Shown: one piece after another, positions 19,870-34,943 of the stretch
How positions within the stretch are numbered: position 1 is the stretch's first letter
How the letters are laid out: each line of letters begins with the position of its first letter
NCBI GenBank assembly: GCA_007693785.1
Contig: RECY01000031.1
Span: forward strand, 1-34,943
DNA from: Phycisphaerales bacterium
GTDB taxonomy: Bacteria > Planctomycetota > Phycisphaerae > Phycisphaerales > UBA1924
Length of the DNA stretch: 34,943 nt
Reading direction: 5' to 3'
Made by a program: the position numbers and the translations under genes
The notes under the pieces: model-generated
Databases searched by the model: none
What the model was told of the DNA's origin: nothing
What the model saw: only the letters and a program-made list of their open reading frames with translations

Positions 19870-20660
19870 CCCTGTCCTTTGGGTGGGATGACCAGCCCGA
19901 ACGCCTCAGGGCGCTCCAGGTCCGCCTCGGTCAGCACCTCCGCCAAGTCATCCACGCGTTTGGCGCGATCGATGGTGAACATCCCCACACGCGTGCGGCG
20001 CAGCCCGGCCAGCACGCCGCCGGTGCCGAGCGATTCGCCGAGATCACGCGCCAGGCTGCGGATATAGGTCCCCTTGCCGCAGTCGATTTCAAGGCGAGCG
20101 ATCGGCCACGCGTACTCGGTCAGCTCGCACCGATCGATGCGCACGGGTCGCGCAGCGAGCTGCGGGCCCTGCCCGCTGCGGGCGAGCTTGTAGGCGCGGG
20201 TGCCGTCGATGCGCATCGCCGAGTGCGCCGGCGGGCGCTGCTGGATCTCGCCGACAAACCGTGCGCACGCCGCCCGCACGTCCGCCTCGCTCGGCGGGCT
20301 CGGCACATCGATCACCGTCGTTTCGCCCTCCAGATCATCCGTCGGCGAGACGCAGGACAGGTCCACGCTCGCTTCGTAGGTCTTCGCACCGCCCATCACC
20401 TGCGCGCTGCACCGCGTCGCCTTGCCGATGAGCACGACGAGGACGCCGGAGGCGAGCGGGTCGAGCGTGCCGCCGTGCCCGACCTTGACGCGCTTGGGCG
20501 CGCCGCCGCGGCGCAGTCGCCGCTTGATGTTGTTGCAGACCGAGGCCGAGGTGTGCCCGAGGGTTTTATCGATCAGGAGCACCCCGGTCGGCCCGGGCGT
20601 CGGGGGGGTCACTGACGCTCTCTCCGGTCGCGTCTGGTCGTGCTCGCTCATGTCGCTCAT
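19866..20660 (-). CDS. truB: tRNA pseudouridine-55 synthase
   Basis: Makes pseudouridine 55 in the T-loop of tRNAs. The catalytic aspartate is D67 in GHGGTLDPLASGVL; KTYEASV and CGKGTYIRSLARDLG are further family motifs. The start at ATG 20660 gives 264 residues and overlaps the upstream glycosyltransferase stop in ATGA; the frame is open further upstream only as a shadow of that gene, and Met 20651 is an alternative. The protein is shorter than E. coli TruB and seems to lack a full C-terminal PUA domain. Residues 1-25 are a Pro/Thr-rich hydrophilic lead. Its stop codon lies in the same CTAG as the convergent HIT gene stop. Confidence 0.95.
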   Translation of the reverse strand: MSDMSEHDQTRPERASVTPPTPGPTGVLLIDKTLGHTSASVCNNIKRRLRRGGAPKRVKVGHGGTLDPLASGVLVVLIGKATRCSAQVMGGAKTYEASVDLSCVSPTDDLEGETTVIDVPSPPSEADVRAACARFVGEIQQRPPAHSAMRIDGTRAYKLARSGQGPQLAARPVRIDRCELTEYAWPIARLEIDCGKGTYIRSLARDLGESLGTGGVLAGLRRTRVGMFTIDRAKRVDDLAEVLTEADLERPEAFGLVIPPKGQG

Positions 20661-22528
20661 GGGCGATCCGTCAGCACGGCGAGCGATTCGCGCCGCCCGC
20701 GGGAGTAGTTGAACCCGGTCGCGCCGCCGAAGCGAGTCATGCCGTCGGCGACGAGCGCGGGGGCCAGGCGTTCGGGAACGATGAGCACGCCGTCGCGATG
20801 CGCCCGGCGCCACTGGGCGACGTCGGGCTCGTTGAGGCGCACCAATCGGCCGCGGGTCGCGAACACGAGGCTGTCCTCGTGATACTGCACGCTCGCGACG
20901 GGGCGCACGCCCGCCGGGTCGGCCTGCGTGATCACACCCTCCAGGCGATCCGTCAGACGCACCACGCCCGGCACACCCGCGACCGTCACCGTCACCGCAA
21001 AGATCAGGCCCGCGAGGAGCCCCACGCCTTGGGTGCGCACAAACCGTCCGTCGTCGGCGTCATCGATCGTGCGCCAGAGCGCGTACGCCGCCCCCGCGCA
21101 CGCCGCGGCGGCCGCAACGCCCGCGAGCGCTTGCAGGCCGCCGAGCCGCACGCTCCAGATCGCCCCCACCGCCGCCATACCCAGCAGCACCCACCCGAGC
21201 ACGACCCAGAGCCGATACCCGAGGCGCGCCGGCTTCCCGAACGCGCTCGCGATGGACCCCGCCTGCGCCGCGAGCAGCCCGCGAGCCGTCAGCAGCGCCA
21301 CCGCGGGGTACAGCGGCATCGTGTAGTGCGGCAGCTTGGTGCTCACCAGTTCGAACACCACCCAGCTCGGCACGAGCCACGCGAGGCAGAACAGCTCGCC
21401 CTTTCGACCCGCAAGGCGGCGACGCCAGCGATACCAGACGCCGCGCAGACGGCTCACCACCCCGAGCCCCCCCGCGACCCGCGGCGTGCGCACGCCCCGG
21501 CGCACCGCACGAACCAGCCCCAGCCCCGTCACGATCACGCCCGGCCAGAACAACGCCATCAGCAGTACGAAGTGATACCCGGGCGGGCCCCAGTGCCCCT
21601 CCTTCGGCGCGGCGCTCCGACCCAGCACCTCGTCGAACACGATCTCGAAGTAGTTCCCAAAGCCGACCTGAGCGGCTACCGCCAATACCCACGGCAGCAC
21701 CATCGCACCCAGGATCACGAGCCCCATCAACGGGCGCAAACGCGCGATCCACGCCCACGATCGCGTCAGCACACCGATCGCGACCACCGCCAGCACAACC
21801 ACCATCGGCGCGATCGGGCCCTTTGCCAAGACGCCGAGCCCTATCGCGACCCACAGCGTTCCCAATGCAAGCATCGGCACGCGCTCGCCCCGTGACGACC
21901 GACGCCACACAACCCACAGCGCCGCCATCGCGACCGTCGTGCACGCCAGCAGCAACTGATCCGCCCGCGCCTGGCGGCTGTCCCACACCACCATCGGCGC
22001 CACCGCCAGCATCGCCGCACCCAACGCACCGGCACGCGGATCGAACACACGAACGCCCAGCCACCACGTCGCCAGCACCGCGACCATCGCCCCCAGCACC
22101 GACGGCACGCGGTACATCCAGATCGCGTCGCGCGCCGGATCGCCCCGGGTCCATATCGCGGCCGAGCCCGCCTGCAACCAGTACACCAGTGGCGGCTTGT
22201 TCAGCCGGTCCCGCTCGCCGATCATCGGCACGACCAGTCCGCCCCGGTGCAACGCCTCCACACGCTGATCAGACGGGAGCGCGACCGACTCGAACATCTG
22301 GCGGCTCGCCTGCGCGAACCGCGCCTCGTCCCGATCGATCACCGGCAGCGCCGACAGCCCGGGCAGATAGATCACCAGGCACCAGAGCAGCAGCAAGCCG
22401 CCGGCCGCGGGGTTCCGCCACCACGCGGCCCCACCCCGGAAACAGAACCGATCGCGGATCGAGCCGAGCCGAGCGTGCAATCCCACCTCCGGGGGGCAAT
22501 GATCCGACCGAGCGCTTGCCCACAACAC
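20657..22528 (-). CDS. ArnT/PMT-like integral membrane glycosyltransferase
   Basis: A 623-residue protein with about ten hydrophobic helices, probably a GT-C fold transferase using a polyprenyl-phosphate sugar donor. Family-like motifs are IDRDEARFAQASRQM in the first outer loop (the DE pair fits the catalytic acid region of ArnT-type enzymes) and RLNKPPLVYWLQ. The hydrophobic segments start at GGLLLLWCLVIYLPGL. The acceptor (lipid A-like, glycan or protein) cannot be told from sequence. GTG 22528 is the longest start; TTG 22480, preceded by GGAGG with 5-nt spacing, is a good alternative giving MHARLG. It is translationally coupled to truB downstream, which looks like packing rather than a shared pathway. 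Confidence 0.85.
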   Translation of the reverse strand: MLWASARSDHCPPEVGLHARLGSIRDRFCFRGGAAWWRNPAAGGLLLLWCLVIYLPGLSALPVIDRDEARFAQASRQMFESVALPSDQRVEALHRGGLVVPMIGERDRLNKPPLVYWLQAGSAAIWTRGDPARDAIWMYRVPSVLGAMVAVLATWWLGVRVFDPRAGALGAAMLAVAPMVVWDSRQARADQLLLACTTVAMAALWVVWRRSSRGERVPMLALGTLWVAIGLGVLAKGPIAPMVVVLAVVAIGVLTRSWAWIARLRPLMGLVILGAMVLPWVLAVAAQVGFGNYFEIVFDEVLGRSAAPKEGHWGPPGYHFVLLMALFWPGVIVTGLGLVRAVRRGVRTPRVAGGLGVVSRLRGVWYRWRRRLAGRKGELFCLAWLVPSWVVFELVSTKLPHYTMPLYPAVALLTARGLLAAQAGSIASAFGKPARLGYRLWVVLGWVLLGMAAVGAIWSVRLGGLQALAGVAAAAACAGAAYALWRTIDDADDGRFVRTQGVGLLAGLIFAVTVTVAGVPGVVRLTDRLEGVITQADPAGVRPVASVQYHEDSLVFATRGRLVRLNEPDVAQWRRAHRDGVLIVPERLAPALVADGMTRFGGATGFNYSRGRRESLAVLTDRP

Positions 22529-22564
22529 ACATCATGCCATGACAGACCACACGCAAGGAGCCCG

Positions 22565-23428
22565 ATGCCAACGCGCCCGAGCACGCCGAGCCCGTGGAAA
22601 GCCGCCCGCGACTATAACCGGGGCCTGACGCCCCCGGTGCGGTGGCTCCACGCGATCGCCGCCGCCCTGCGCACGGCGCTCGCGCCCGCCCTCGGCTGGC
22701 TCAACACCCCCGGTCAACGCTTCTGGCGATGGCCGATCCTGCTCGGGACGCTCGGCGTGCTCATCCTCTGGCAATACGACGCTGCCGTCGCCGAGTGGGC
22801 GAGAAACCTCCGCCTCGGCGGCGATTTCCGGCGAGAGCTCGAAGCCCTCCAACAGTTCGGCGGCCTCGGCTCGCTCGTGCTCGTCGCCGTCCTGGTCTGG
22901 ACGCTCACCCCCGCCAACCGGCGACGCCTCGCCGACCTCGCCGCCGCCGCCGCCGCGACCGGGCTCGCGACCTACATCGGCAAGATCCTAATCGGGCGCC
23001 CGCGCCCGAGGATGCACGAAACCTATGACGCCGGCGTCATCCTCGCCCCCACCGGCGTCCACCCCTTCCCCCCGCCCCTCGGCCCTCGCCACGCCTGGGA
23101 GTTTTGGCAACCCATCGGCAGTGACTTCTGGTCATTCCCCAGCAGCCATACCTCCGCAGCGGTCGCCCTCGCGGTCTTCCTCGCCGTCCTCTACCCCCGG
23201 GCCCGATGGGTCTGGATCACGCTGGTCGCGGTCGTCGCGCTGGCTCGCGTCCTCTTCGGCGCCCACTACCCGAGCGACGTCGTCGCCGGGGCGGCCCTCG
23301 GCGTCATCGTCGCGGTTCCGATCGTGACAAGCCGAGTTGCCAGCCGACGCTTCCCGGGGCGGCCCCCGCCGAATCGCCCTGACAACCGCGAGCCAAGGGG
23401 TCGTCACCCCGAGACACCGACGCTATGA
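22565..23428 (+). CDS. PAP2-family membrane phosphatase
   Basis: A 287-residue membrane protein of the PAP2/undecaprenyl-pyrophosphate phosphatase superfamily. The three phosphatase motifs are present: KILIGRPRPR, FPSSHTSAA, and ARVLFGAHYPSD (catalytic His in GAHYPSD). These enzymes release phosphate from lipid phosphates such as phosphatidic acid or undecaprenyl pyrophosphate at the outer face of the inner membrane. AAGGAG lies 4 nt before ATG 22565, which fixes the start. The gene is divergent from the ArnT-like glycosyltransferase, which would also use a polyprenyl lipid, so a link through lipid carrier recycling is possible. The tail of about 35 residues is Pro/Arg-rich and hydrophilic. 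Confidence 0.9.
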   Translation: MPTRPSTPSPWKAARDYNRGLTPPVRWLHAIAAALRTALAPALGWLNTPGQRFWRWPILLGTLGVLILWQYDAAVAEWARNLRLGGDFRRELEALQQFGGLGSLVLVAVLVWTLTPANRRRLADLAAAAAATGLATYIGKILIGRPRPRMHETYDAGVILAPTGVHPFPPPLGPRHAWEFWQPIGSDFWSFPSSHTSAAVALAVFLAVLYPRARWVWITLVAVVALARVLFGAHYPSDVVAGAALGVIVAVPIVTSRVASRRFPGRPPPNRPDNREPRGRHPETPTL

Positions 23429-23429
23429 T
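23401..23429 (+). promoter_or_regulatory. Promoter of tRNA-Ser
   Basis: TCGTCA at 23401-23406 and TATGAT at 23424-23429 are separated by exactly 17 bp and lie 38 nt before the tRNA-Ser gene, inside the 3' end of the PAP2 gene. Confidence 0.5.
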
Positions 23430-23467
23430 GCGGCAACCCGCAGCCACCCGGCTGCACCGACACGCTT

Positions 23468-23554
23468 GGAGAGGTGGCAGAGCGGTTGAACGCGCCGGTT
23501 TCGAAAACCGGTTGGGCCTTCGGGTCCACGGGGGTTCGAATCCCCCCCTCTCCG
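23468..23554 (+). tRNA. tRNA-Ser (anticodon CGA)
   Basis: An 87-nt class II tRNA. The acceptor stem is GGAGAGG/CCTCTCC with discriminator G; the anticodon stem CCGGT/ACCGG encloses loop TTCGAAA (anticodon CGA). A long variable arm precedes the T-arm GGGGG-TTCGAAT-CCCCC. CCA is not encoded. The CGA anticodon reads UCG codons, frequent in this GC-rich genome. Confidence 0.96.
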
Positions 23555-23891
23555 CTTGCGCGGGAGACTCTCTTTGTTAGGGTCTTCCGTTTTTTTGTTT
23601 CGGGCGTTTTTCTCGCGATTTCTCGCGATTTTCGCGGGTCACCGGGGGTTCGAATCCGAACATGCCGTCCGGAGAGCGTCCGGTGTCGCGAGGATCCCGC
23701 GAGCGTCTCTCGGGGCCCATTTCGGTGGTGTGGAATTTCGGGGTCGGCGGCGTTCCCGGGCCGGACACCGAGAAAGCCCGAAACGACATCGACCGCTCCC
23801 GCCCGGCCGCGATGCGTTGGTCCTCACGCGGCATCGATGTGCGGATGGTGTCTTTGCGAATGAGCAGGTGCGAATGAGCAGGCCCCGCGAT
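23555..23891. other. Non-coding stretch between tRNA-Ser and the recombinase
   Basis: No gene is supported. It holds a T-run at 23590-23596 after the tRNA (possible transcript end), a tandem 10-bp repeat TCTCGCGATT at 23611-23630, the tRNA T-arm copy at 23635-23657, and a near-duplicate octamer GAGCAGGTGC/GAGCAGG around 23862-23882. The rest shows nothing recognisable. Confidence 0.6.
23635..23657 (+). repeat. Partial duplicate of the tRNA-Ser T-arm, candidate attachment-site scar
   Basis: These 23 bases match tRNA-Ser positions 23521-23543 except for two adjacent bases (CA replaced by AC). The match covers the variable-arm end and T-arm and stops at the T-stem, 114 bp downstream of the original. 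Such copies of tRNA 3' segments are typical of integration sites. Confidence 0.75.
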
Positions 23892-25739
23892 TCAGACGCC
23901 GAGGGCTTGGGCCTGGCGTGACCACTCGAGGTCCCGGGCGGTGCGCTGGAGATCGGCGAGTGTCGTGCTCGAACTGAGCGTGCCGGTGAAGACGGCGCGG
24001 AGGACCGCGGGACTGAGTTGCGTCAGAGGGAGCATCGCGTGGAGGCGCGAGGGCGCGACGCCGGCGCGCTGCGCGACCGCGTCGATGGTGGCGCCGGGCT
24101 CGAGCAGGTCGCGTCGCCACGCGTACGCGAGACCGATCGCGCGGACGAGGTGGTCCTGAGGCATCGGGCGACCGTCGGGCGCGAGCATGGTCAGTAGGTC
24201 GTGGCCGTCGGGGCTCAGGAGCACGCGGCGGCCGTCGTGGCGTTTGATCTGGACGCGGAGGGTCAGGACCAATCGCGGGCCGCGGTCGTCGAGCTCGGGC
24301 GTGAAGGGGCACACGGGGACCTGAGCTGTCGCGCCGCGTGCCCGCGTGCTGGGATTGGAACTAGAACTGGGGCTGGGGCTGGGGCTGGACCCCGACGCTG
24401 TCTCGCGCACCGCTTCGATGCACGCGGCGATCCGGTCGCGGGCCAGCTCGATGCTGATCTGGTCGGGCGCGATGACGACGCGGTGGATCACCTCGCGGAC
24501 CCAGCGGTCGCGGGCTTGGGGCTCCTGGCTGTGCAGGTCGGCGCTGTGCTCGCGGTGCAGATGCCCGAGCACCACCGCCCGGACCAGCTCGTCGATCTGC
24601 GCCGCGCTGATCGATTTGATCGGGCAGGTCTTGTACCCCTGCTTCACGGCTTTCTGGCTGACGTAGTAGCGGACGATGCGGCGGGCGTCCTCGCCGAGGG
24701 CGCGACACACGTCCGCCCGCTTCGAGACTGGGCGCTGGACCGAGCCCGGGCTCATGGCGTGCCCCTCCAAGGTGCGGAGCTTGCCCTTGAGCAGGTGCGT
24801 GTGCGTCCAGACCCGGCGGGATGCGCGCTCGGCCGTGCGCATCTCGGCGTGCACTCGGTCCCAGGTCGCCCGGTCGATGATCGGCTCGTGGCGGCCCTCG
24901 TGGACCTCGGTCTGCTTGGGTACGCCGCGGATGTTTCGGCCGCGGGTGTGGGCGATCTTGCCGATGTAGACCGGGTTGGTCAGGACGCGGTGGATGAAGG
25001 CGGCGTTGAGCGGGCGCCCGCCGTGCGTAACGCCGCGGCTGCTGGTCCATTTCTTGGTCGTGCGGCCCTCGGCGTTGAGCCGGGCCGCCAGCTCGACCGG
25101 GGAGGCGCGTTCGAGGTAGCCGCGGAAGATCGCGCGGACCAGCTCGGCCTCGGGCTCGATGACGCGGAGGACGCGGTCGCCCGTCGAAAAGCCCGGGTCG
25201 CCCTCGCGCGGGAGGCGGTAGCCCAGGGGTGGCTGGCCGCAGACCCAGACGCCCTTTCGCTTGGTGGCGGCGATCTTGTCGCGGATGCGCTCGCCGGTGA
25301 CCTCGCGCTCGAACTGGGCGAAGGAGAGGAGCATGTTGAGCGTGAGGCGGCCCATGGAGGTCGTGGTGTTGAACTGCTGGGTGACCGAGACGAACGAGAC
25401 GCCGCGCTCGTCGAAGGTCTGCATGAGCCGGGCGAAGTCGGCCAGCGACCGCGAGAGGCGGTCGACCTTGTAGACGACCACCACGTCGACGCGGCGTTTG
25501 CTGATGTCGGCGAGCAGCCGCTGGAGCCCGGGGCGGTCGGTCGAGCCGCCGGAGTACCCGCCGTCGTCGTAGGGCGTGGTGATGGCGGTCCAGCCCTGGT
25601 GCTTCTGGCTTTTGATGTAGTCGAGGCCGGCCTCGCGCTGGGCGTCGAGGGAGTTGAAGGCCTGGTCGAGGCCTTCCTCGCTGGACTTGCGCGTGTAGAC
25701 GGCGCAGCGGAGGGTTGGTGTGGGGGTCGGCGTGGTCAT
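23892..25739 (-). CDS. Large serine recombinase
   Basis: A 615-residue site-specific recombinase. The N-terminal resolvase domain has catalytic S19 in VYTRKSSEEG, the YKVDRLSRSLADFARL arginine segment and the EREVTGERIRDKI helix leading to the recombinase domain (PPLGYRLP, NAAFIHRVLTNPVYIGK). The usual zinc-ribbon position reads LLKGKLRTLEGHAMSPG and lacks the C-x2-C knuckle, as in some planctomycete and alphaproteobacterial relatives. A Ser/Pro linker follows (about residues 460-480, encoded partly by a GGGGCT hexamer repeat), then a C-terminal helix-turn-helix-like part (ATIDAVAQRAGVAPSRLHAML). The start at ATG 25739 overlaps the DUF2924 stop in ATGA. It probably drives integration and excision of the surrounding element. 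Confidence 0.93.
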   Translation of the reverse strand: MTTPTPTPTLRCAVYTRKSSEEGLDQAFNSLDAQREAGLDYIKSQKHQGWTAITTPYDDGGYSGGSTDRPGLQRLLADISKRRVDVVVVYKVDRLSRSLADFARLMQTFDERGVSFVSVTQQFNTTTSMGRLTLNMLLSFAQFEREVTGERIRDKIAATKRKGVWVCGQPPLGYRLPREGDPGFSTGDRVLRVIEPEAELVRAIFRGYLERASPVELAARLNAEGRTTKKWTSSRGVTHGGRPLNAAFIHRVLTNPVYIGKIAHTRGRNIRGVPKQTEVHEGRHEPIIDRATWDRVHAEMRTAERASRRVWTHTHLLKGKLRTLEGHAMSPGSVQRPVSKRADVCRALGEDARRIVRYYVSQKAVKQGYKTCPIKSISAAQIDELVRAVVLGHLHREHSADLHSQEPQARDRWVREVIHRVVIAPDQISIELARDRIAACIEAVRETASGSSPSPSPSSSSNPSTRARGATAQVPVCPFTPELDDRGPRLVLTLRVQIKRHDGRRVLLSPDGHDLLTMLAPDGRPMPQDHLVRAIGLAYAWRRDLLEPGATIDAVAQRAGVAPSRLHAMLPLTQLSPAVLRAVFTGTLSSSTTLADLQRTARDLEWSRQAQALGV

Positions 25740-26365
25740 GCGCGATCCGAGGTGTTCTTCGAGGGCGTGCGGACGGTGAGGCCGAAGAAGCGCGGGCCGG
25801 ACCAGCGTGTGCCGGTGATCTCTCGGGCGATCTCGCTGAGTGTGGCGTAGGTGCGGTCGCGGTAGGCGAAGCCGCGGCCGGGCCCGAGGGCGTGGACCTC
25901 GTGGCGCTGGCCGTGCCATGTGCGGGTGAGCCGGGCGCCGGGCGGGAGATCGGGGCCCGGGACGCGGTTGGTGGACGCGGTGCCGCGGGGGCGGCGTTTG
26001 GGTGTTGGGGGTGCTGAGGATGCGGGTGGCGTCGAGGCGTGTTGATCGCCGTCGTCGAGGCTGCGGACCACGCTCTTGCTCGCGGCACGGATCGCGCGAT
26101 GGAGTTGGCGGCGTATCTGGGCGTCGAGGCCGCCATGGCGGCGCTCCTGCGTGCGCCAGGCGAGTTCGCGGATCAGCAGGCGCTTGGCGGCGGGCGCCGC
26201 GGCACGGCCCATGTGCGCCGACCAGAGCGCGCGGAGGTCCGCGATCGGCATTACGGGGAGTGTGTCGAGGGAAACGGGGATCGGTGGGCGCGAGCCGCGG
26301 AGTGGCGGGATCGGGGCTGGGGCTGGGGGCGTGATGGCGGATGGTGTGGTGGGCGCTGGATCCAT
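25736..26365 (-). CDS. DUF2924 protein, recombinase companion
   Basis: A 209-residue protein ending in the DUF2924 signature: GARLTRTWHGQRHEVHAL, then YRDRTYATLSEIAREITG and TRWSGPRFFGL. The middle part LRALWSAHMGRAAAPAAKRLLIRELAWRTQE is the conserved N-terminal helix region. The first 40 residues are Pro/Ala/Thr-rich and partly encoded by GGGGCT repeats. Start ATG 26365 has AGGAG upstream. It overlaps the recombinase gene by 4 nt (ATGA), so the two are translationally coupled. DUF2924 genes commonly sit beside serine recombinases; a role as recombination directionality factor or DNA-binding accessory is plausible but unproven. Confidence 0.9.
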   Translation of the reverse strand: MDPAPTTPSAITPPAPAPIPPLRGSRPPIPVSLDTLPVMPIADLRALWSAHMGRAAAPAAKRLLIRELAWRTQERRHGGLDAQIRRQLHRAIRAASKSVVRSLDDGDQHASTPPASSAPPTPKRRPRGTASTNRVPGPDLPPGARLTRTWHGQRHEVHALGPGRGFAYRDRTYATLSEIAREITGTRWSGPRFFGLTVRTPSKNTSDRA

Positions 26366-26506
26366 GATCGGGTGCTCCTGGTCAGAGTGGCGGCGAGCGC
26401 ACGCACACTGAGCCATGAAACGGCGAACGGATCCAGCGGAATCTCGGAAAACAACCGGGTTTCTCGAGCGGTTTCGGCGTATGCACGCGGTGCGCCGCCG
26501 TGGTTT

Positions 26507-26522
26507 CAAGGACATGTCCTTG
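26507..26522. promoter_or_regulatory. Perfect 16-bp palindrome in the divergent control region
   Basis: CAAGGACATGTCCTTG is an exact palindrome, lying in the 295-bp gap between the divergent DUF2924-recombinase and DUF6900-HARE genes. This is the position and size of a dimeric repressor operator. The binder is unknown. Confidence 0.55.
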
Positions 26523-26660
26523 GTATGCCGCGGAGTCTCGAAAACATCTGGAATTCAAGGCGGAATCGGCTTCCCTTGGGCGCGGTGTCATGGCTGAATA
26601 CGTGACACGCGGGGCGGATCCTCCCGGCCCCGTCCAACGCCAACCAGTACGGAGTCGCCC

Positions 26661-26906
26661 ATGAGCACCACCCCCACCACACGCGAGAACACGATCAATC
26701 GCATCGCCCGGGAAGCGCTCGGCATCAAGACGCTGGAGACCCGCCACAGCGACGGCCTCGACTTCCACGACATCGCGGTCTGGACGATGAAGGACGCGCT
26801 CGAGCGGGCGTACGAGGCGGGCCGCAAGGCCGCGCCACCCAGCCGAACCAAGTGCCCGACCTGCCACCGGGACATCGAGATCCGACCCATCCCGCCCCTG
26901 ACCTGA
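26661..26906 (+). CDS. DUF6900 small protein
   Basis: An 81-residue protein with the DUF6900-like pattern IAREALGIKTLETRHSDGLD followed by FHDIAVWTMKDALERAYEAG, then a C-terminal CPTC knuckle (only one pair of cysteines in the protein). GGAG lies 8 nt before ATG 26661. DUF6900 proteins are small and of unknown function; they occur on plasmids and mobile elements. It is divergent from the recombinase operon and upstream of the HARE-HTH gene, with a hairpin between them. Confidence 0.8.
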   Translation: MSTTPTTRENTINRIAREALGIKTLETRHSDGLDFHDIAVWTMKDALERAYEAGRKAAPPSRTKCPTCHRDIEIRPIPPLT

Positions 26907-26934
26907 AGCCCGCTCGTTGCGGGCTTCGCTGTTT
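26905..26934 (+). terminator. Hairpin with T-run after the DUF6900 gene
   Basis: A perfect 9-bp stem (26905-26913 and 26919-26927), loop of 5 nt, then GCTGTTTT. It overlaps the DUF6900 stop codon. It may attenuate transcription into the HARE-HTH gene, whose start is 24 nt further on. Confidence 0.6.
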
Positions 26935-26957
26935 TCAGAACCCAAAGGAGTACCGAC

Positions 26958-27554
26958 ATGACCAAGAAGACCACGAAGAAGACGACCACCAAGAAGACCA
27001 GCAGCAAGACGGCCGCGAAGAAGGCCCCGGCCAAGACCACGCGGGCGGTCGCGAAGACCAACGCCAGCGTCGACGCCAACCTCAAGGCGATCGCTGCGGC
27101 CGACCAGGAGAACGCGAAGCAGCGCGACCAGCGGGCCGCCAGCAAAGATGGCATGACCGCGAGCGAGCGGGCGATGGCCGAGTCCGAAGCGGACGCCGCC
27201 AAGATGCTCGAGGCGATCCGAAGCGGCAACCTGGCCGAGGGGATCACGATCCCGCGGTCGACACAGCGCAAGACCAAGAGCGACGCGGCTGGCGGTAAGC
27301 GCCCGAGCGGGCTCGACCTCGCCGCGAAGGTCCTCGCCGAGGCGAACGAGCCGCTGGCCGCCAAGGCGATCGCCGAGCGCGCCGTTGCCGCGGGCTGGAA
27401 GACGAGCGGCCAGACGCCGCACGCCACGCTCTACGCCGCGATGATCCGCGAGATCGCCAAGAAGGGCGACGAGGCACGCTTCAAGAAGGCCGACCGGGGG
27501 ATGTTTGTCGCGGCGGGGTCGAACAGGTCAGGCTCAACGACAGGAACCGCATGA
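26958..27554 (+). CDS. HARE-HTH protein with histone-like lysine tail
   Basis: A 198-residue protein in two parts. Residues 1-35 are almost only Lys, Thr, Ala and Ser (TKKTTKKTTTKKTSSK), like the basic tails of bacterial histone H1-like proteins. Residues about 115-185 match the HARE-HTH winged-helix fold (LDLAAKVLAEANEPLAAKAI, then HATLYAAMIREIAKKGDEAR and FKKADRGMFVA). HARE-HTH occurs in RNA polymerase delta, restriction enzymes and chromatin proteins and is thought to sense or bind modified or distorted DNA. AAAGGAG lies 7 nt before the ATG. It probably binds the element's DNA; regulation or packaging is inferred. Confidence 0.82.
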   Translation: MTKKTTKKTTTKKTSSKTAAKKAPAKTTRAVAKTNASVDANLKAIAAADQENAKQRDQRAASKDGMTASERAMAESEADAAKMLEAIRSGNLAEGITIPRSTQRKTKSDAAGGKRPSGLDLAAKVLAEANEPLAAKAIAERAVAAGWKTSGQTPHATLYAAMIREIAKKGDEARFKKADRGMFVAAGSNRSGSTTGTA

Positions 27555-27710
27555 GACTGCGGGCGGAGCATCGCGCCCATGCCGGGGCGTCGGGGTTCGT
27601 CTTGAATACAGCACACCGGCGATGAGGCACCTCGGACTCGGGGACCTTCTACGAGCCCCGCGACGCCGAGGCCGCCGACGCACCGGGGCCTCTCTCGGTG
27701 CGAGTCCTGG

Positions 27711-27902
27711 AGCACGTTCCCGTCGGTGTTGGCCAGCGCGATCACGTCCGCACGCCAGTTCTGGAGCACGTACACCCGCTCGTCGAGCGTCCCGCTGGCG
27801 GTGGTGTCCCGTTCACGCATGAGCACCTGATCAATGTAGCTCGAACCGCCCCGCCCGCCAAGCCCGGCCGTGTGGTGCAGCCACTGCTCGATCGGGTCGT
27901 CC
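27711..27902 (-). pseudogene. Detached fragment of the RHS core (duplicate of 30465-30655)
   Basis: About 190 bp match 30465-30654 with only eight differences by my count, roughly 96 percent identity. In frame on the minus strand it still encodes EQWLHHTAGLGGRGGSSYID through NWRADVIALANTDGNVL, and then leaves the RHS sequence abruptly. The frame stays open another hundred codons with no recognisable protein. It has the same orientation as the RHS gene and lies beyond its tip and the downstream gene. The flanks (27555-27710 and 27903-27953) hold nothing else recognised. Confidence 0.88.
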
Positions 27903-27953
27903 CTCATTGATGGACGACTGGCCCCACAGCGAACGGTCATGCGTATAGATCAT

Positions 27954-29234
27954 TTACTTACATTGACATCGCACCCAGCCGTCAAACACCTGATTTCTGA
28001 TATGACCAGAGATATCTGCCGAATCCGGGCCTGCTGCGGGCAGGCGAATCACGATCGGAACGAACTGACCGTTCTGAACCATTGGCGCTGTCTGGATATC
28101 GAATCTCTTATCAAAATTGGATAATATTGGCGTGATAGAGACATAGCCAAACAACATGTCAGCAGTCGGCGACGACCACATAGTCTCCGGGCTCATGCCG
28201 CGGGTTTGAGCGCTGACACGGCTCACCCTTGCGTTCCACTCCCCCTGCCCGTCTTCCCGGATGAGCACCTTCAAAAGTCTCGAACTCTTTGACGCTGGCA
28301 CGGCATAAAAGCCGACGACCGCGTCCTCTGGCATCTGCTCGGATGTGAGCAGACCCACCGGGCGTCCCCAACGCTGCCTGACACTGATCGGCTTTCCCGT
28401 CTCAGTATCGAGAATCGCGCCGTTCTCCACAATGGCATACCGCCCACACGTTGACCAGACCGCACGTCTGATGGGCTCCCAGCTCCGCCAAGGCTCGCTA
28501 ATCCAATGCTCGCGGAAGTTGAGCTGGACACGAAACGCGACGTCCTGCCTATCCGCCTCCCAGTCAATCCGGCCGCCGACGACATCTTTGGTGCGTGTGT
28601 CCCACCCGACCCAAGCGCCATTGGGTCCGAGTGAGATCTGAATGATCTCCGGACTGAACTCCGTGATCTGCTCACGGTAAACGTTCATCGCCGACCACGC
28701 GCCACGACCGGTGTTTTGCGGCTGCAAGACGGCCACGTGCTCTCTTGACCCACGGTTCGGCACGAAGTGACGCGGCAACTCCGTCTCGTACACGGGGGGC
28801 ACAACGCTGCCCCGCGGGGCAGCGATCAGCGGCCAAACCGCGAGATGCCTGACGCTAAACTCCCTTCCAGAACCGTCTTCCAATGGCGTGAATATTGTAA
28901 CACTAACATATAAATATGTCCCACTTGAATCCACTCTAAGCCCGAGCCCTCGCACGCCGTTTAACTGAGGGGCAGACCGCACCTCCTCGGCCACATCCTC
29001 TTTCCCAAACTCAAGAAGCTTGCCGGCCGCCCAGGCGCGCACCGAGCCGGAAACCCACTGAAGGGAAGGGCAGCCTACCACGTCCGCGTTTCTATTCAGG
29101 AACCCCGTGCCACAGCGAACCGGCTCGGTATCAGCTCCTGCGAACGCCTTTGTGGCGGATGCCATGATCACAAGCACACAGAATATACCGAAAAAATTGT
29201 ACAACACTATTCTCCTACTATTCCACAATCCCAT
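27954..29234 (-). CDS. Secreted hypothetical protein directly after the RHS tip
   Basis: A 426-residue protein with a signal peptide (LYNFFGIFCVLVIMASATKAFA). The mature part is rich in beta-strand and aromatic residues, with no motif I recognise; patterns such as VGWDTRTKDVVGG, STCGRYAIVENGAILDTETG and MWSSPTADMLFGYV suggest a beta-propeller or similar repeat fold. It overlaps the RHS 3' end by 28 nt from ATG 29234; GTG 29207 or TTG 29204, preceded by AGGAG, are good alternative starts. AT content is higher than in the RHS core and similar to the RHS tip, so the two seem to have arrived together. Position and export would fit an immunity protein for a toxic tip acting outside the cytoplasm, but this is only inference. 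Confidence 0.75.
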   Translation of the reverse strand: MGLWNSRRIVLYNFFGIFCVLVIMASATKAFAGADTEPVRCGTGFLNRNADVVGCPSLQWVSGSVRAWAAGKLLEFGKEDVAEEVRSAPQLNGVRGLGLRVDSSGTYLYVSVTIFTPLEDGSGREFSVRHLAVWPLIAAPRGSVVPPVYETELPRHFVPNRGSREHVAVLQPQNTGRGAWSAMNVYREQITEFSPEIIQISLGPNGAWVGWDTRTKDVVGGRIDWEADRQDVAFRVQLNFREHWISEPWRSWEPIRRAVWSTCGRYAIVENGAILDTETGKPISVRQRWGRPVGLLTSEQMPEDAVVGFYAVPASKSSRLLKVLIREDGQGEWNARVSRVSAQTRGMSPETMWSSPTADMLFGYVSITPILSNFDKRFDIQTAPMVQNGQFVPIVIRLPAAGPDSADISGHIRNQVFDGWVRCQCK

Positions 29235-32200
29235 TCCTTATTTTCCCATCCAACAGGGCCAAGACCTGTCCTAGGGGGCGTAATTACTTGATTGGGAAAG
29301 CAACACCGAGACGCATTGGAAATCACGGTATTGGAATTCGGACCGAACAACCGGTAACGTTCGATACAGTCGAACCGTCTCGTCATATCCTGAATGCAAC
29401 TCCAAGCCGAGCAATCCGAACTCACCAGAACAGCACGGGGATCGTTGTCCAAGTCAAACTCTACATTCGGATCTCGCTGATCGGGCGACTTCAAGTATTC
29501 ATTGCATTGCGTACGAATCGGGTTCGACTCTCCACGTTCCTTAGGCGTCCGCCCATCCGGGCAGTGCGGCGACGGAGGATCTCCCGGGCGGTCCCCGCCG
29601 CTCGAAGAAGAACTCGAAACTGGTATGCCCGATGATCTCGAGATGCCACTCGAACTCGAGCTACTTGAACTTGAACTACTTGAACTGCTGCTTCCAGACT
29701 TTCCCCTGTGAGGTCCGCCTCGGCATATCTGCCAATTTTCCCGATCAGATCCCGACTGCCGAAGCAGGTAACAATGCTGGGCACCGGTACGCGGGATTGG
29801 ATCACAGATCAACCAAATCCGGCAGATATCCGGCTCAACACCTCCGCCATCTCCGCACGCTGACGAGATCCCTCGATCGCAGATCCCACCTATGCAGCCT
29901 GGGCGGCACTCCGGGTTGACACCGTTGTCATCGGAACCCGGCAAACCCGCTCCTCCCCTGCGTGAGGGCCCTTGCGGGCAAGACATGCCCTGACAGATGA
30001 GGCCCGATGGATCAACGGCCGTGAGCGGGCCGCCGCGAACATATTGGTACAGATTCTGCCCATCCACATACCCCAGCGGATCTTTCCGTGTCCACCGCCC
30101 CAGGTCCGGGTCGTAGACGCGGTGCCGCACGTGGTAGCGGCCGATCACCGGGTCCCACACGTACCCCGCGTAGCCCAGCACGCTGCCGAGCTGGCTCAGC
30201 GTGCCGCGCCCGCCCGGCGTCGCGTTGTTGTAAAGGGCCAGGTAATGGTTCAGGTCGGCCGTGCCCACCACCCCGTCCGGCCAGCCGTCGAGCCCAGGGC
30301 CCGTGACGTCGGCGCGCGGGTCGTTCACATCCCACCACGCCAAGAACAGGTTGAGATCGGACGTGCTCACCACCCCGTCCGGGATCGCGTTGCCGCTCGG
30401 GCCGGTCAGGTCGGCCGGGTCGATCCGGAAGGGCTGCCCGTAGGCGTCGTAGCGGACCCGCTCCAGCACGTTCCCGTCGGTGTTGGTCAGCGCGATCACG
30501 TCCGCACGCCAGTTCTGCAGGATGTACACCCGCTCGTCGAGCGTCCCGCTGGCGGTGGTGTCCCGTTCACGCATGATCACCTGATCAATGTAACTCGAAC
30601 CGCCCCGCCCGCCAAGCCCGGCCGCGTGGTGCAGCCACTGCTCGGTCGGGTCGTCGTCGCCCTCCGCGTACGACGCCACCAGACGCCAGCGTTCGTCGTA
30701 GACGTAGAACGTCCAAGGGTCGTCACCGTCCACCTCGCCATCGAGGTTGACGTCCACGTGGGCCCCGATCCGGTGCCCCAGGGCGTTGTAGCGGTACGCC
30801 GCGATCAGGTTGTTGTTTGTTCGGTTGCGGACCTCGGCCAAGCGCCCGAAGGCGTCGTAGACCAGGATGTGCGCCTTGCCGTCGTCGGTCATGTTCCCCA
30901 CCGGGTCGTAGGCGAGGATGACGTCGTCGGTGCTGTTGTTGTCGAGGTCCCGGGCCACGAGCTGGTTGGCCGCGTTGTGGGTCCGGGCGTCCTCACGCCC
31001 GTCGAAGCTGGCCTCGTGCAGCAGCCAGTTGCCCAGGTGGTCCAGCGTCCAGTCCTCGGTCTGCTGACCGCTCGTGATCGCCGAGCCCGACCAGACGCCG
31101 CGCTCGCTGGAGGTCAGGCGGTCCAGGTCGTCGTGCGTGTAGGCGACGTCCCAGCCGGCCATGAGGGGCGTGGACTCGACCGTGCGGCCGACGGTGCCGG
31201 TGCGGCCGTAGGTGACGGCGACGTCGTACACCGGGTAGTCCGTGATCGGCAGGTCTTTGAACCAGCTCGAGCTGGTGATGCGCCCGAAGCGGTCGAGCCC
31301 GTCGTAGACGCCGGTACCCCCGCCGTTGACGGCCGAGTAGAGCTCCGGCTGCGGCAGGTCGGTGCGGACCACGCTCGCCACGCCGAGGTATTGGTAGCTC
31401 GCCAGGGGGATGGCGCCGACGCCGGTGGTCCCGACGCTGGTGACGCGGGCGAGATCGTCGTCAAAGCGACCGCCGGCGTCGCTGTAGGCGAAGGCGTAGG
31501 TCTGCCCGCCGGGGAGCGTGAGCGAGGTGCGGCGGATCGTGCGCCACGACGCGGCGGCGTGATGCGCGTGCGTGTACGCGATGCTGTACGCGTCGGCGTC
31601 GATCGCCGAGTTGTGGTCCTGCTCGAACAGGGCGAGGTTGCCCCAGTCATCGTAGGTGTACGCGACTTGGTCGGTCACGCTCCCGCTGGTCGCCGCGTCG
31701 TACTGCGTGACGGTCGAGACCATCCCGCGGTCGTCGAAGCCGGTCTCGATCCGGCGGACGTCGCCGTTGAACCCGCTCGCCAGCGTAGCGACGGCCTGCG
31801 CTACCGCGCGACCGCGCACGTCGTAGGACGTCGCGATGACGTTCCCAGCCTGGTCCTGGACACGGATCGTCTCGCCCAGCGCGTTGTACGCGTAGCTCAC
31901 CAGGTCCGCATCGTCGGTGTCGACGTCGGCCATCGTGACCGCGGTGCTGGCCGAGCCGGGGTAGCGCACGGCCCGCAGCATGTGACCCGAAGCCACCTGC
32001 GAGTCGCCCCCGGTGGTGGTCCCGTAGATGTACTGCGTGACCTGATCGTCGGTGTCCTGCACGCCGTCGCCGTTCAAGTCGACCCAGACCTGCGTCTGCA
32101 GCCCGTACTCGTAGACAAAACGCGTGTAGAGGTCGTCATCGCCGGTCGGGCCGCTCGGCGTGCCGTTGACGTAGTTGCGGATCGTGGCGACGGCGCGACG

Positions 32201-34943
32201 GGCGTCGTCGTACAGCGTGCGGCTCTCTCGCCCGAGCGGATCGATCGTGGACCGCAGCGTGCCGTCGGCGTTGTACACACGCGTGGTGCGGAGCGCGTCG
32301 TCGGACCGGGCCGGGACCGCGAGCCCGTCGCGGTCAAAGTCGGCTCCGCCGTGGGTGCCGAAGGCGACCGACTCCACCAGCCGATCGAGCTCGTCGTACC
32401 ACATCGACCGGATCTCGAACCGCCCCGCGACGTCCGCGGCCGTCACCATCCATGCGTCGTTGTCGGCGTTGGTGTCCAGCGGCCCGGTCGTCTCACCCGA
32501 GCCAAAGTCGTCCTCGTGCCGGTGGATCACGATCGTCATCAGCGCGTTGCCGGTCTCGTCCTCGAACAGCGTCTGACGCTCGGTCAGCACGATGTCGCCC
32601 GCCACGCTCGCGGCGTCGTCGTTGGTCGCGTCGTCGGTCCGGGCGATCGTGAAGGCGTGCGTCGCCCGGCCGAGCCGGTCGTACCGGGTCTTGGAGATAC
32701 TCCCCCCGTGCTGCTTGATCGCGCGGCCCATGTGGTCGTACCACGTCTCGCTCACCAGCGTTTCGCCGGCTTTCGAGCCGTCGCCCTGGTCGATCTCGAA
32801 TTGCTCGGTCTTGAAGACCCGCCCGCGGTCGTCGTAGTACGTCTTGCTCAGGCTGAGCCGGTCGTCGGCTGTGGCGTCGGGTGTGCTGGTGCCAATCGTG
32901 ATACCCGCGACGTCGCTGTAGCTCGCCGATTCGATCACCCGCCCGAGATTGTCCAGGCGCACAAACGTGTGCGGCCCGTTCGGGTAGACCGTCAGCACCC
33001 GGCGGTCCCGGCCGTCGTACCCGTACGAGGTCACACGCTGGTCACCCGTGGTGCCCCAGTTCCCGTCCGCGTCCAGCGTCACGCTCGCGACACGGCCGGC
33101 CGCGTCGTACGCCGTCACGCTCGTCTTGACCATGTCGTCCGTGCCGGAGGTCGACCCGCCCGGGAACGATTGATCGTTCGTGCCGATCCAGCTCTCGGTC
33201 GGACGCCCGACACCGTCGTACACCGTCCGGCTGATCGTCCCGCTCGGCGCCGCCACCCGCGCGCGGCGGCCGCCGTTGTCGTACCCGTATGTGGTGGCGT
33301 CGTAGTGCGTGCCCGCGGTGCCCGGCAGGCTCGACGGAATGCTGAAGTAGCTCCGCGATTCCAGCACACGCCCGCCCGCCGTGTCGTGCACGCTCGTGCC
33401 CACGCCGCTCAGCGTCGCCCCGGAGAGCACCAGCGCCTCGATCGGGTCCGCCTCGGTGTGATCGATCCAGCCCCCGATCCCCGCAGTGGTCGAGCCGCCC
33501 GGCAGCACGATCGTCGCCCGGAACTCGACCGCGCCCGCGTGGCTCCGCACCGTGTAGCTCACCGGACCCTCGAACGCCCCGCTGCCGCTCACGTACCGCG
33601 GCACCGAGAGCACGGCTTCACGCCCGTCGGCCAACGCCGTCCGGTGCGTCCGCGTCACGCGCCCGTTCGGCAACGCGACGTGCGTCACCCGGCCGAGCTC
33701 GTCGTGCGCATACGTGGTCACGAGATGCACCGCGTCGCCGGCGCTCGCAAAATCGTGCCCACCCACGTTCGGGATCGTCACGCCCTCGAAGACCTCCCCG
33801 CTGCCGCTCCTCGTCGTGTCCGCGTCGCGCACCCGCGCCGTCACGAGCCCCGTCGCCGCGTCGTACGCCGTGTACGAGATCCGCCCCTCCGCATCACGGG
33901 TGAACGTGGTGCGCCCCTGCAGCGTCATCGCCCGCTTGCTGATCGCGTCGCCCGTCAGGCCGTTCTGCCCGGACGGCACCGACGGCAGCGTCTGCACCGT
34001 CACTTCCGGGATCGACGTCCCGGTATGCACGATGTGATCGACCGCCGTGACGGGGATGCCCGCATCACGCGCATCGCCGGGTGCCGTTTCGTCGCGGTAG
34101 GTGTAGCCCGAGCCCCCGAGCACACGCGTCAACGCGACCGGGCCGAGGTCCAGCTGCTGGGTCTCATAATCCGGCGAGGACAGCAGATACGGCGAGCCGC
34201 CCGTGCCGACCTGCCAGGTCACCAGGTCCATCATCCCACGCGTCAGCCCCGTGGCCCGCTCGATGGTCGTCACGAGGCCATCGGTGGCGCTCCGCGTGAA
34301 AGCCGAGGTCGTGGGGTCGTAGGCGGTCACGTTCGACGGCGCATGGATGACCGAAACAAACCCCTCCTCGTCACGCTCGACGTACGTCGCCAGCACCATC
34401 GACGGGCTCGCGTCCGGTGCCGCATCGGTTACGACGCGCGACAGCGGCTGCCCGACCTCGTCGAGGTACTGCGTGATAAACCCGTCGCCCGGCGTCTGCA
34501 CCACCACCCGGCGGTGCCACTCCGGGTCGTACCCGCTCGTGGCCGGGTGGGCGCCGTTCACCGCCGAGTACGTGAACACGTACTCCCCGTCCAGACCGCC
34601 CGCGCACCCGCACTCCCCGTTGTGCCAAACCGTGGTCACACGCCGATCGGTGTCGTACTGCCAGAAGCTGCTCGCGTACGGCTTCAGATCGCCCTCGCTC
34701 GCCGTGAGGAAGCTCTTATTTGACAGGTTCTGATCCAGCCAGTCGTACTGACGGCACCCCTCCGCGTCCACCCACAGCCGGAGCTGGTGCGGATAGCCCG
34801 GGTTCGTCGTCGCGTGATACGAGCCCGTGTAGTACCGGAAATGCTGCTCCCGACGCACCGAGACCCCGGGCGCGTTCGTGGGCAGCACTGACCTGCCCCC
34901 ACGGTTTAGTCCACCGACAGAGTTAGTGTATCGGCTTCTCCGC
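29207..34943 (-). CDS. Giant RHS/YD-repeat protein, 5' end outside window
   Basis: The frame runs from the TAG at 29207 to the window edge without a stop, so at least 1,911 residues are present and the N-terminus is missing; GTG 34888 is only an internal codon. Many YD repeats are visible, such as YGYDNGGRRARV, TAYDAAGRVASV, YYDDRGRVFKTE and YDAFGRLAEVRN, which in known RHS proteins wind into a large shell. The core ends with the RHS signature DPLGYVDGQNLYQYVRGGPLTAVDPSGL-type motif near 30000-30075. Two Ca-loop-like DxNxDG segments and an inserted EF-hand pair lie in the last third. The final ~260 residues form a Cys- and Ser-rich tip of lower GC. The tip matches no toxin I know. RHS proteins can deliver toxins or act in adhesion. 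Confidence 0.9.
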   Translation of the reverse strand, partial: RRSRYTNSVGGLNRGGRSVLPTNAPGVSVRREQHFRYYTGSYHATTNPGYPHQLRLWVDAEGCRQYDWLDQNLSNKSFLTASEGDLKPYASSFWQYDTDRRVTTVWHNGECGCAGGLDGEYVFTYSAVNGAHPATSGYDPEWHRRVVVQTPGDGFITQYLDEVGQPLSRVVTDAAPDASPSMVLATYVERDEEGFVSVIHAPSNVTAYDPTTSAFTRSATDGLVTTIERATGLTRGMMDLVTWQVGTGGSPYLLSSPDYETQQLDLGPVALTRVLGGSGYTYRDETAPGDARDAGIPVTAVDHIVHTGTSIPEVTVQTLPSVPSGQNGLTGDAISKRAMTLQGRTTFTRDAEGRISYTAYDAATGLVTARVRDADTTRSGSGEVFEGVTIPNVGGHDFASAGDAVHLVTTYAHDELGRVTHVALPNGRVTRTHRTALADGREAVLSVPRYVSGSGAFEGPVSYTVRSHAGAVEFRATIVLPGGSTTAGIGGWIDHTEADPIEALVLSGATLSGVGTSVHDTAGGRVLESRSYFSIPSSLPGTAGTHYDATTYGYDNGGRRARVAAPSGTISRTVYDGVGRPTESWIGTNDQSFPGGSTSGTDDMVKTSVTAYDAAGRVASVTLDADGNWGTTGDQRVTSYGYDGRDRRVLTVYPNGPHTFVRLDNLGRVIESASYSDVAGITIGTSTPDATADDRLSLSKTYYDDRGRVFKTEQFEIDQGDGSKAGETLVSETWYDHMGRAIKQHGGSISKTRYDRLGRATHAFTIARTDDATNDDAASVAGDIVLTERQTLFEDETGNALMTIVIHRHEDDFGSGETTGPLDTNADNDAWMVTAADVAGRFEIRSMWYDELDRLVESVAFGTHGGADFDRDGLAVPARSDDALRTTRVYNADGTLRSTIDPLGRESRTLYDDARRAVATIRNYVNGTPSGPTGDDDLYTRFVYEYGLQTQVWVDLNGDGVQDTDDQVTQYIYGTTTGGDSQVASGHMLRAVRYPGSASTAVTMADVDTDDADLVSYAYNALGETIRVQDQAGNVIATSYDVRGRAVAQAVATLASGFNGDVRRIETGFDDRGMVSTVTQYDAATSGSVTDQVAYTYDDWGNLALFEQDHNSAIDADAYSIAYTHAHHAAASWRTIRRTSLTLPGGQTYAFAYSDAGGRFDDDLARVTSVGTTGVGAIPLASYQYLGVASVVRTDLPQPELYSAVNGGGTGVYDGLDRFGRITSSSWFKDLPITDYPVYDVAVTYGRTGTVGRTVESTPLMAGWDVAYTHDDLDRLTSSERGVWSGSAITSGQQTEDWTLDHLGNWLLHEASFDGREDARTHNAANQLVARDLDNNSTDDVILAYDPVGNMTDDGKAHILVYDAFGRLAEVRNRTNNNLIAAYRYNALGHRIGAHVDVNLDGEVDGDDPWTFYVYDERWRLVASYAEGDDDPTEQWLHHAAGLGGRGGSSYIDQVIMRERDTTASGTLDERVYILQNWRADVIALTNTDGNVLERVRYDAYGQPFRIDPADLTGPSGNAIPDGVVSTSDLNLFLAWWDVNDPRADVTGPGLDGWPDGVVGTADLNHYLALYNNATPGGRGTLSQLGSVLGYAGYVWDPVIGRYHVRHRVYDPDLGRWTRKDPLGYVDGQNLYQYVRGGPLTAVDPSGLICQGMSCPQGPSRRGGAGLPGSDDNGVNPECRPGCIGGICDRGISSACGDGGGVEPDICRIWLICDPIPRTGAQHCYLLRQSGSDRENWQICRGGPHRGKSGSSSSSSSSSSSSSSSGISRSSGIPVSSSSSSGGDRPGDPPSPHCPDGRTPKERGESNPIRTQCNEYLKSPDQRDPNVEFDLDNDPRAVLVSSDCSAWSCIQDMTRRFDCIERYRLFGPNSNTVISNASRCCFPNQVITPPRTGLGPVGWENKEWDCGIVGE
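29598..29695 (-). other. Polyserine segments in the RHS tip
   Basis: Two serine tracts, of about 15 and 6 residues, flank a short Gly/Ile/Pro linker. The codons are mixed (AGT, TCA, AGC, TCG) with a loose AGTTCA hexamer rhythm, so the tract is not a simple trinucleotide run. It divides the tip into an N-terminal Cys-rich part and a C-terminal part with further cysteines. Confidence 0.85.
30222..30422 (-). other. EF-hand/dockerin-like pair inserted in the RHS core
   Basis: Within the RHS frame, between YDAYGQPFR and LGYAGYVWDP, lie two modules of pattern DGVVSTSDLNLFLAWW and DGVVGTADLNHYLALY. They match the C-terminal pair of the amylase. In related RHS proteins this place usually holds a short variable loop, so the pair is an insertion or replacement. 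Confidence 0.8.

What the first reader, a model, noticed from the sequence alone, without database searches (positions are those of the whole stretch)
27711..30655. RHS tip and partner gene bracketed by direct repeats of RHS core
A 190-bp piece of the core (30465-30654) recurs at 27711-27900 in the same orientation at about 96 percent identity. Between the copies lie the end of the core, the tip, and the secreted downstream gene. Recombination between the copies would remove the tip and its partner and join the core to new sequence. This is the arrangement expected of an exchangeable tip cassette or the remains of a past exchange, as known for orphan rhs tips in Enterobacteria, but I know of no such description for Phycisphaerae.
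Basis: partly seen in the sequence, partly recalled or inferred. Interest (0 to 1): 0.65.

Follow-up and report, generated by a model that had tools for sequence, protein, structure and literature searches.

The report
Fossil of swapped Rhs toxin tip
A bacterium's large toxin-like gene (rhs) has a 191-base scrap of itself lying downstream, most likely left over from an old event in which a new tip pushed out the previous one; related bacteria show the same process with the old tips still attached.

Summary
27711-27901 repeats 30465-30655 in the same orientation (183 of 191 bases, no gaps, sharp ends); the genome holds only these two copies. Between them lie the rest of the rhs core, a low-GC tip and a secreted-looking gene. 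The downstream copy is core residues 1430-1493 only: it stops before the conserved core end and has no tip. Crossover between the copies would delete the tip without supplying another, so this is not a working exchange cassette.

Relatives explain it. Of 35 rhs frames with at least 2 kb downstream, 13 (window included) are followed on the same strand by at least 100 bp of their own gene; none of 24 has one upstream. Many pieces carry unrelated tips; others, like this one, do not. Genes with 78-91% identical cores end in unrelated tips, and tip types attached in one genome are detached in another. This is the C-terminal displacement anatomy described in Enterobacteria (Jackson 2009), tipless fragments included. 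The window copy is best read as the eroded remnant of such an event. This is inferred from relatives: no other genome of the genus was offered. New member of a known kind.

The parts
29207..34942 (-). rhs gene (P0001, 1911 aa shown), 5' end cut by the contig end; YD repeats and RHS core, then tip
   Evidence: TIGR03696 at residues 1585-1648 and TIGR01643; PF05593
30465..30655 (-). repeat copy A, inside the core of the rhs gene (residues 1430-1493)
30224..30418 (-). GC-type dockerin-like insert inside the core (residues 1509-1573)
   Evidence: NF041540 E 2e-16
29999..30190 (-). conserved core end (Rhs_assc_core, residues 1585-1648); absent behind the downstream copy
29210..29995 (-). variable tip, 262 aa, Cys-rich with a Ser run; GC 55.5% (GC3 53.1) against core 69.0% (GC3 91.2)
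   Evidence: no Pfam family; weak likeness to one other rhs tip (L058, E 0.017)
27954..29234 (-). partner gene, 426 aa, overlaps the rhs end by 28 nt, signal-like N-terminus (by eye), GC 57.4%; candidate immunity gene
   Evidence: no family; no clear relative
27711..27901 (-). repeat copy B, tipless remnant of core, 95.8% identical to copy A
27431..27940 (-). open frame through copy B (P0003, 169 aa); after the core piece it reads 93 codons of unrelated sequence, partly over the convergent gene; not judged a real gene

Best explanation
Copy B is the eroded remnant of an older rhs tip module. A DNA molecule carrying a stretch of rhs core, a new tip and its partner gene recombined with the core of the resident rhs gene. 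The new tip became attached, and the previous core fragment and tip were pushed downstream on the same strand. Later deletion removed the old core end, tip and partner, leaving 191 bp of core between the new partner gene and the convergent HARE-HTH gene. Shown: the repeat, its position and orientation, the low-GC tip plus partner between the copies, and the same layout with tips still attached in relatives. Inferred: the insertion, any circular intermediate (from Jackson 2009), the later deletion, and that tip and partner are a toxin/immunity pair.
For: Repeat exact and found at only two places. GC: core 69.0, tip 55.5, partner 57.4, copy B 67.5; in 38 of 39 frames closed at the 3' end the last 450 nt are lower in GC than the core. 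13 of 35 rhs frames with at least 2 kb downstream carry at least 100 bp of their own gene downstream on the same strand (12 of the 27 with a full 8 kb), and 0 of 24 with at least 2 kb upstream carry any there. 22 of 22 such pieces of at least 100 bp match a gene of their own genome best; for the 21 with a match elsewhere the means are 88% and 76%. Among 62 tips compared, none resembles another of its own locus at E 0.05. Tip types attached in one genome are detached in others (L051 vs L053 and L070; L042 and L038 vs L072; L050 vs L076). In 8 of 8 pairs picked for close cores (78-91% DNA identity; the pairs share members), DNA identity stops 14-27 residues before the tip and no tip pair matches below E 0.09. 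Differences between pieces and parent genes fall on codon positions 233:173:610, like intact genes of different genomes, 1401:1025:3522. The same genome holds a detached core end with its own low-GC tip on contig C29. Jackson 2009 reports the same anatomy, including a downstream core fragment without obvious tip (passages read).
Against: The window copy carries no tip, so the key sign of a displaced module is missing here. Its 8 differences fall 4:1:3 on codon positions: too few to judge, but without the third-position bias of the pooled set. One search offered no genome of the same genus, so there is no before/after comparison at this site. 22 of 35 frames have no downstream repeat of at least 100 bp. 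The codon-position argument is only moderate: a freely decaying copy compared with a constrained parent would also show some third-position excess. Toxicity and immunity are untested, and tip and partner match no known family.
Confidence: 0.75

Rival explanations
1. A local duplication of part of the core (slippage or ectopic copying), never attached to a tip, now decaying neutrally.
For: No core end or tip follows copy B; its 8 differences fall 4:1:3 by codon position, with 5 of 7 changed codons non-synonymous.
Against: It lies where relatives carry core pieces, some with tips, on the same strand downstream and in no case upstream; a plain duplication does not explain the low-GC tip and partner lying between the copies.
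Confidence: 0.13
2. A live, reversible cassette: the two copies recombine today, excising or re-inserting tip and partner.
For: 191 bp at 96% identity can serve homologous recombination in many bacteria (general knowledge, no call).
Against: Excision would join the core to 93 unrelated codons without core end or tip. The one other core end with a tip in this assembly (C29) has 43% protein identity and no DNA match to this rhs region, so it could not serve as a homologous donor.
Confidence: 0.05
3. Copy B is an edge of a neighbouring mobile element (serine recombinase and HARE-HTH gene at 23892-27554) that captured a piece of rhs.
For: A serine recombinase and a HARE-HTH gene lie beside copy B; some relatives have such genes near rhs.
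Against: Only 4 of 60 relative loci hold a recombinase match and 4 others a HARE match, so most core pieces lack such neighbours in the stretch held; in 20000-34943 no inverted repeat of 40 nt or more was found that could mark element ends.
Confidence: 0.07

Closest known systems
C-terminal displacement arrays of Enterobacterial rhs loci (Jackson et al. 2009, PMC2935791; passages read)
   Same: GC-rich core with low-GC tip; downstream same-strand core fragments of varying length highly similar to the adjacent gene; unrelated tips within a locus; tips seen attached in one genome and detached in another; occasional tipless core fragments.
   Different: Host group is Phycisphaerae-like planctomycetes; the core holds a dockerin-like insert near its end; the window locus has a single, tipless piece.
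Polymorphic toxin systems with standalone toxin cassettes (Zhang et al. 2012, PMC3482391; passages read)
   Same: Constant body with variable C-terminal domain, adjacent candidate immunity gene, solo cassettes nearby; planctomycetes are listed for several toxin and immunity domains.
   Different: The window tip and partner match no Pfam or NCBIfam family.
mafB loci of Neisseria (as described in Jackson 2009)
   Same: Full gene followed by C-terminal fragments of lower GC.
   Different: Unrelated protein, according to that paper; not compared here.

Membership tests
Rhs protein family | YD/RHS repeats and conserved Rhs-associated core end | tested here: met
   PF05593 E 3e-11; TIGR03696 E 1.2e-18 at 1585-1648
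Rhs C-terminal displacement locus | Core fragment downstream, same strand, near-identical to the upstream core | tested here: met
   183 of 191
Rhs C-terminal displacement locus | Tip (and downstream gene) of lower GC than core | tested here: met
   55.5 and 57.4 against 69.0
Rhs C-terminal displacement locus | Downstream core fragment bears a different tip | tested here: not met
   window copy B ends before the core end and has no tip; met in relatives such as L055, L065, L073. Jackson 2009 also reports tipless fragments, so this lowers but does not bar membership
Rhs C-terminal displacement locus | Alternative tips after the same core in close strains | tested here: inconclusive
   no same-genus genome offered; seen in 8 of 8 related pairs elsewhere
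Polymorphic toxin system | Recognised toxin domain in the tip | tested here: not met
   no Pfam hit, no NCBIfam hit in the tip; this does not exclude an undescribed toxin domain
Polymorphic toxin system | Immunity gene directly after the tip, neutralising it | not testable with these tools
   a gene is present and overlaps; function untested
Polymorphic toxin system | Known export route | not tested
   the 5' end of the gene is missing from the contig

The most novel reading that the evidence does not exclude
Phycisphaerae rhs loci form an order-wide tip-displacement system, separate from the Enterobacterial one, with dockerin-bearing cores and tips drawn from a shared pool of cysteine-rich domains (some with HExxH-like motifs), in which detached pieces still serve as tip reservoirs.
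Probability: 0.3. Interest if true: 0.5.

Novelty: new member of a known kind. Interest (0 to 1): 0.38.

Why it matters
It extends tip displacement, worked out in Enterobacteria, to a little-studied planctomycete group, and offers a simple sequence check (codon-position signature of detached core pieces) for import against local duplication. The loci supply many unnamed tip and partner pairs to assay.

Tried and rejected
AlphaFold2 models of the tip (3-row alignment, mean pLDDT 36) and of the partner gene (single sequence, mean pLDDT 33) were useless, so no fold search was made. Searches for relatives of the tip (392 genomes; 14 besides the window's own at E 0.0003-0.008) and of the partner (61 and 392 genomes; 2 besides its own at E 0.001-0.005) gave only marginal scores, not followed up. 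A preferred breakpoint for core pieces was looked for (81 repeat pairs, several per locus, not independent, one of them a dockerin-like repeat outside rhs): starts are spread along the core, so a site-specific mechanism was set aside. Plasmid records gave one irrelevant record, best match 37 bases. Rfam: 0 matches in 27000-31000 at gathering scores. A difference in codon signature between tip-bearing and tipless pieces was looked for and not found (63% and 64% at third positions, 6 and 7 of the 22 pieces, sorted by hand). A likeness of the tip to papain-like enzymes was considered by eye and recall only and is not claimed.

Limits of the counts: the loci were chosen by best core matches, not at random (35 of 61 genomes matched, own included; 7 further regions picked). 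Repeats were sought within 8 kb at E 1e-6. L038 and L039 were left out of the 42-frame tally by oversight; both have downstream repeats. L050 (1.9 kb downstream) has a repeat but falls under the 2-kb limit; L106 has only a 70-bp repeat and is not among the 13. L103 and L112 frames end early, so for them the 'tip' GC is not that of a real tip. The split into 9 and 13 repeats is crude, since some repeats are pieces of one longer copy.

Full report
What is there. The window is the whole of one 34,943-base contig of a 3.06-Mb assembly in 45 contigs. The rhs gene runs on the minus strand from the contig end to 29207 (1911 residues shown; its start is missing). Residues 1430-1493 (30465-30655) recur at 27711-27901 in the same orientation with 183 of 191 bases identical, no gaps and sharp ends. 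No third copy was found in the assembly. Between the copies lie the rest of the core with a GC-type dockerin-like insert (NF041540, residues 1509-1573) and the Rhs_assc_core end (1585-1648), the tip, and a 426-residue gene that overlaps the rhs end by 28 nt.

The downstream copy is a stump. Its match ends at residue 1493, before the core end, and the open frame then reads 93 codons of unrelated sequence, partly over the convergent HARE-HTH gene at 26958-27554. A crossover between the copies would give a rhs gene with neither core end nor tip. This removes the reading of a working exchange cassette.

Composition. Core 69.0% GC (GC3 91.2), tip 55.5% (53.1), partner 57.4% (65.6), copy B 67.5%, the stretch beyond it 71.8%. 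Tip and partner look imported as a block; copy B looks like core.

Elsewhere in the same assembly. Besides copy B, one search listed 26 weaker places; 25 match the dockerin-like segment or its surroundings, and one (C29:66728-67045) matches the core end. Read, it is a 281-codon frame with a dockerin-like piece, a core end and about 140 further residues, at 52.9% GC in a 66.7% GC stretch. No other rhs match lies in the 19 kb held around it. It is a detached core end with its own tip, but of another core type: 43% protein identity and no DNA match to the window's rhs region.

Relatives. A 600-residue core query matched 35 of 61 genomes, own included. Forty-two rhs frames of at least 1200 residues were found in the loci examined. 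Of 35 with at least 2 kb downstream, 13 have at least 100 bp of their own gene downstream on the same strand; of the 27 with a full 8 kb, 12 do; of 24 with at least 2 kb upstream, none has any there. Less upstream sequence was scanned (107 kb against 259 kb). The only opposite-strand repeats belong to one inverted pair of whole genes (L057). Of 22 downstream repeats of at least 80 bp, 9 run well past the place where the window copy stops, towards the tip junction, and 13 stop earlier (a crude split).

Tips. Sixty-two tips longer than 60 residues were compared. None resembles another of its own locus at E 0.05. Related tips occur attached in one genome and detached in another: L051 with L053 and L070, L042 and L038 with L072, L050 with L076, L060 with L078; L055 and L065 share an 80-residue stretch. 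In 8 pairs of genes picked for close cores (78-91% DNA identity; members shared between pairs, one pair within a single genome), identity stops 14-27 residues before the tip, and no tip pair matches below E 0.09. Pfam knew 2 of 10 tips scanned, both as families of unknown function, and not the window tip.

Origin of the pieces. 22 of 22 core pieces of at least 100 bp match a gene of their own genome better than any of another; one of them had no other-genome match. Differences fall 233:173:610 on codon positions, against 1401:1025:3522 for intact genes of 8 between-genome pairs. That is what differences built up in working genes look like, and it favours imported alleles over local copies decaying freely. 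The argument is moderate: overlapping repeats were counted more than once, half of any difference belongs to the constrained parent gene, and tipless pieces do not differ from tip-bearing ones. The window pair has only 8 differences, 4:1:3, and decides nothing by itself.

Known work. Jackson et al. 2009 (PMC2935791, passages read) describe this anatomy in Enterobacteria, name it C-terminal displacement, propose recombination with a circular intermediate, and note two strains with a downstream core fragment without obvious tip. Zhang et al. 2012 (PMC3482391, passages read) describe standalone toxin cassettes across bacteria and list planctomycetes for several toxin and immunity domains. In the held library no paper has both Phycisphaerae and Rhs, and none has dockerin, RHS repeat and Planctomycet-. 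Searches listed three papers in all, of which only PMC3482391 was opened; the other two were seen in the listing only. The library lacks most subscription papers, so this does not show that nothing is in print.

Verdict. Copy B is most likely the fossil of a displaced tip module. The kind is known; no description for this host group was met in the searches named. Displacement at this very site is inferred from relatives, since no close strain was offered.

Noticed in passing
L144 8642-9487 (own genome, contig C29): A detached rhs core end with a dockerin-like piece and its own low-GC tip (52.9% in a 66.7% stretch), of a different core type from the window's rhs (43% protein identity, no DNA match).
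   Followed up: partly
L057 (2130-9245 + and 12731-19666 -): Two convergent rhs genes, 99.3% identical over 2085 residues with 3.8 kb of identical DNA, end in unrelated tips; inversion between them could exchange tips.
   Followed up: partly
window 30224-30418; L065, L049, L051, L113: A GC-type dockerin-like segment sits inside the rhs core just before its conserved end: above NCBIfam's cut-off in the window and L065, below it in three more of 10 relatives scanned; a blastp with the window segment found it in 2 of 42 frames, the window's own included.
   Followed up: partly
window 23892-25919 and 26958-27554: A large serine recombinase and a HARE-HTH gene lie next to the rhs locus; recombinase matches occur in 4 and HARE matches in 4 other of 60 relative loci.
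   Followed up: partly
L071 near 14070 and L072 near 9564 (minus strand): Detached core pieces run straight into what looks, by eye and recall, like an IS5-type transposase frame.
   Followed up: no
L038, L042, L061, L064, L072 tips: Several cysteine-rich tips hold an HExxH-like motif (by eye), suggesting metalloprotease-like tips.
   Followed up: no
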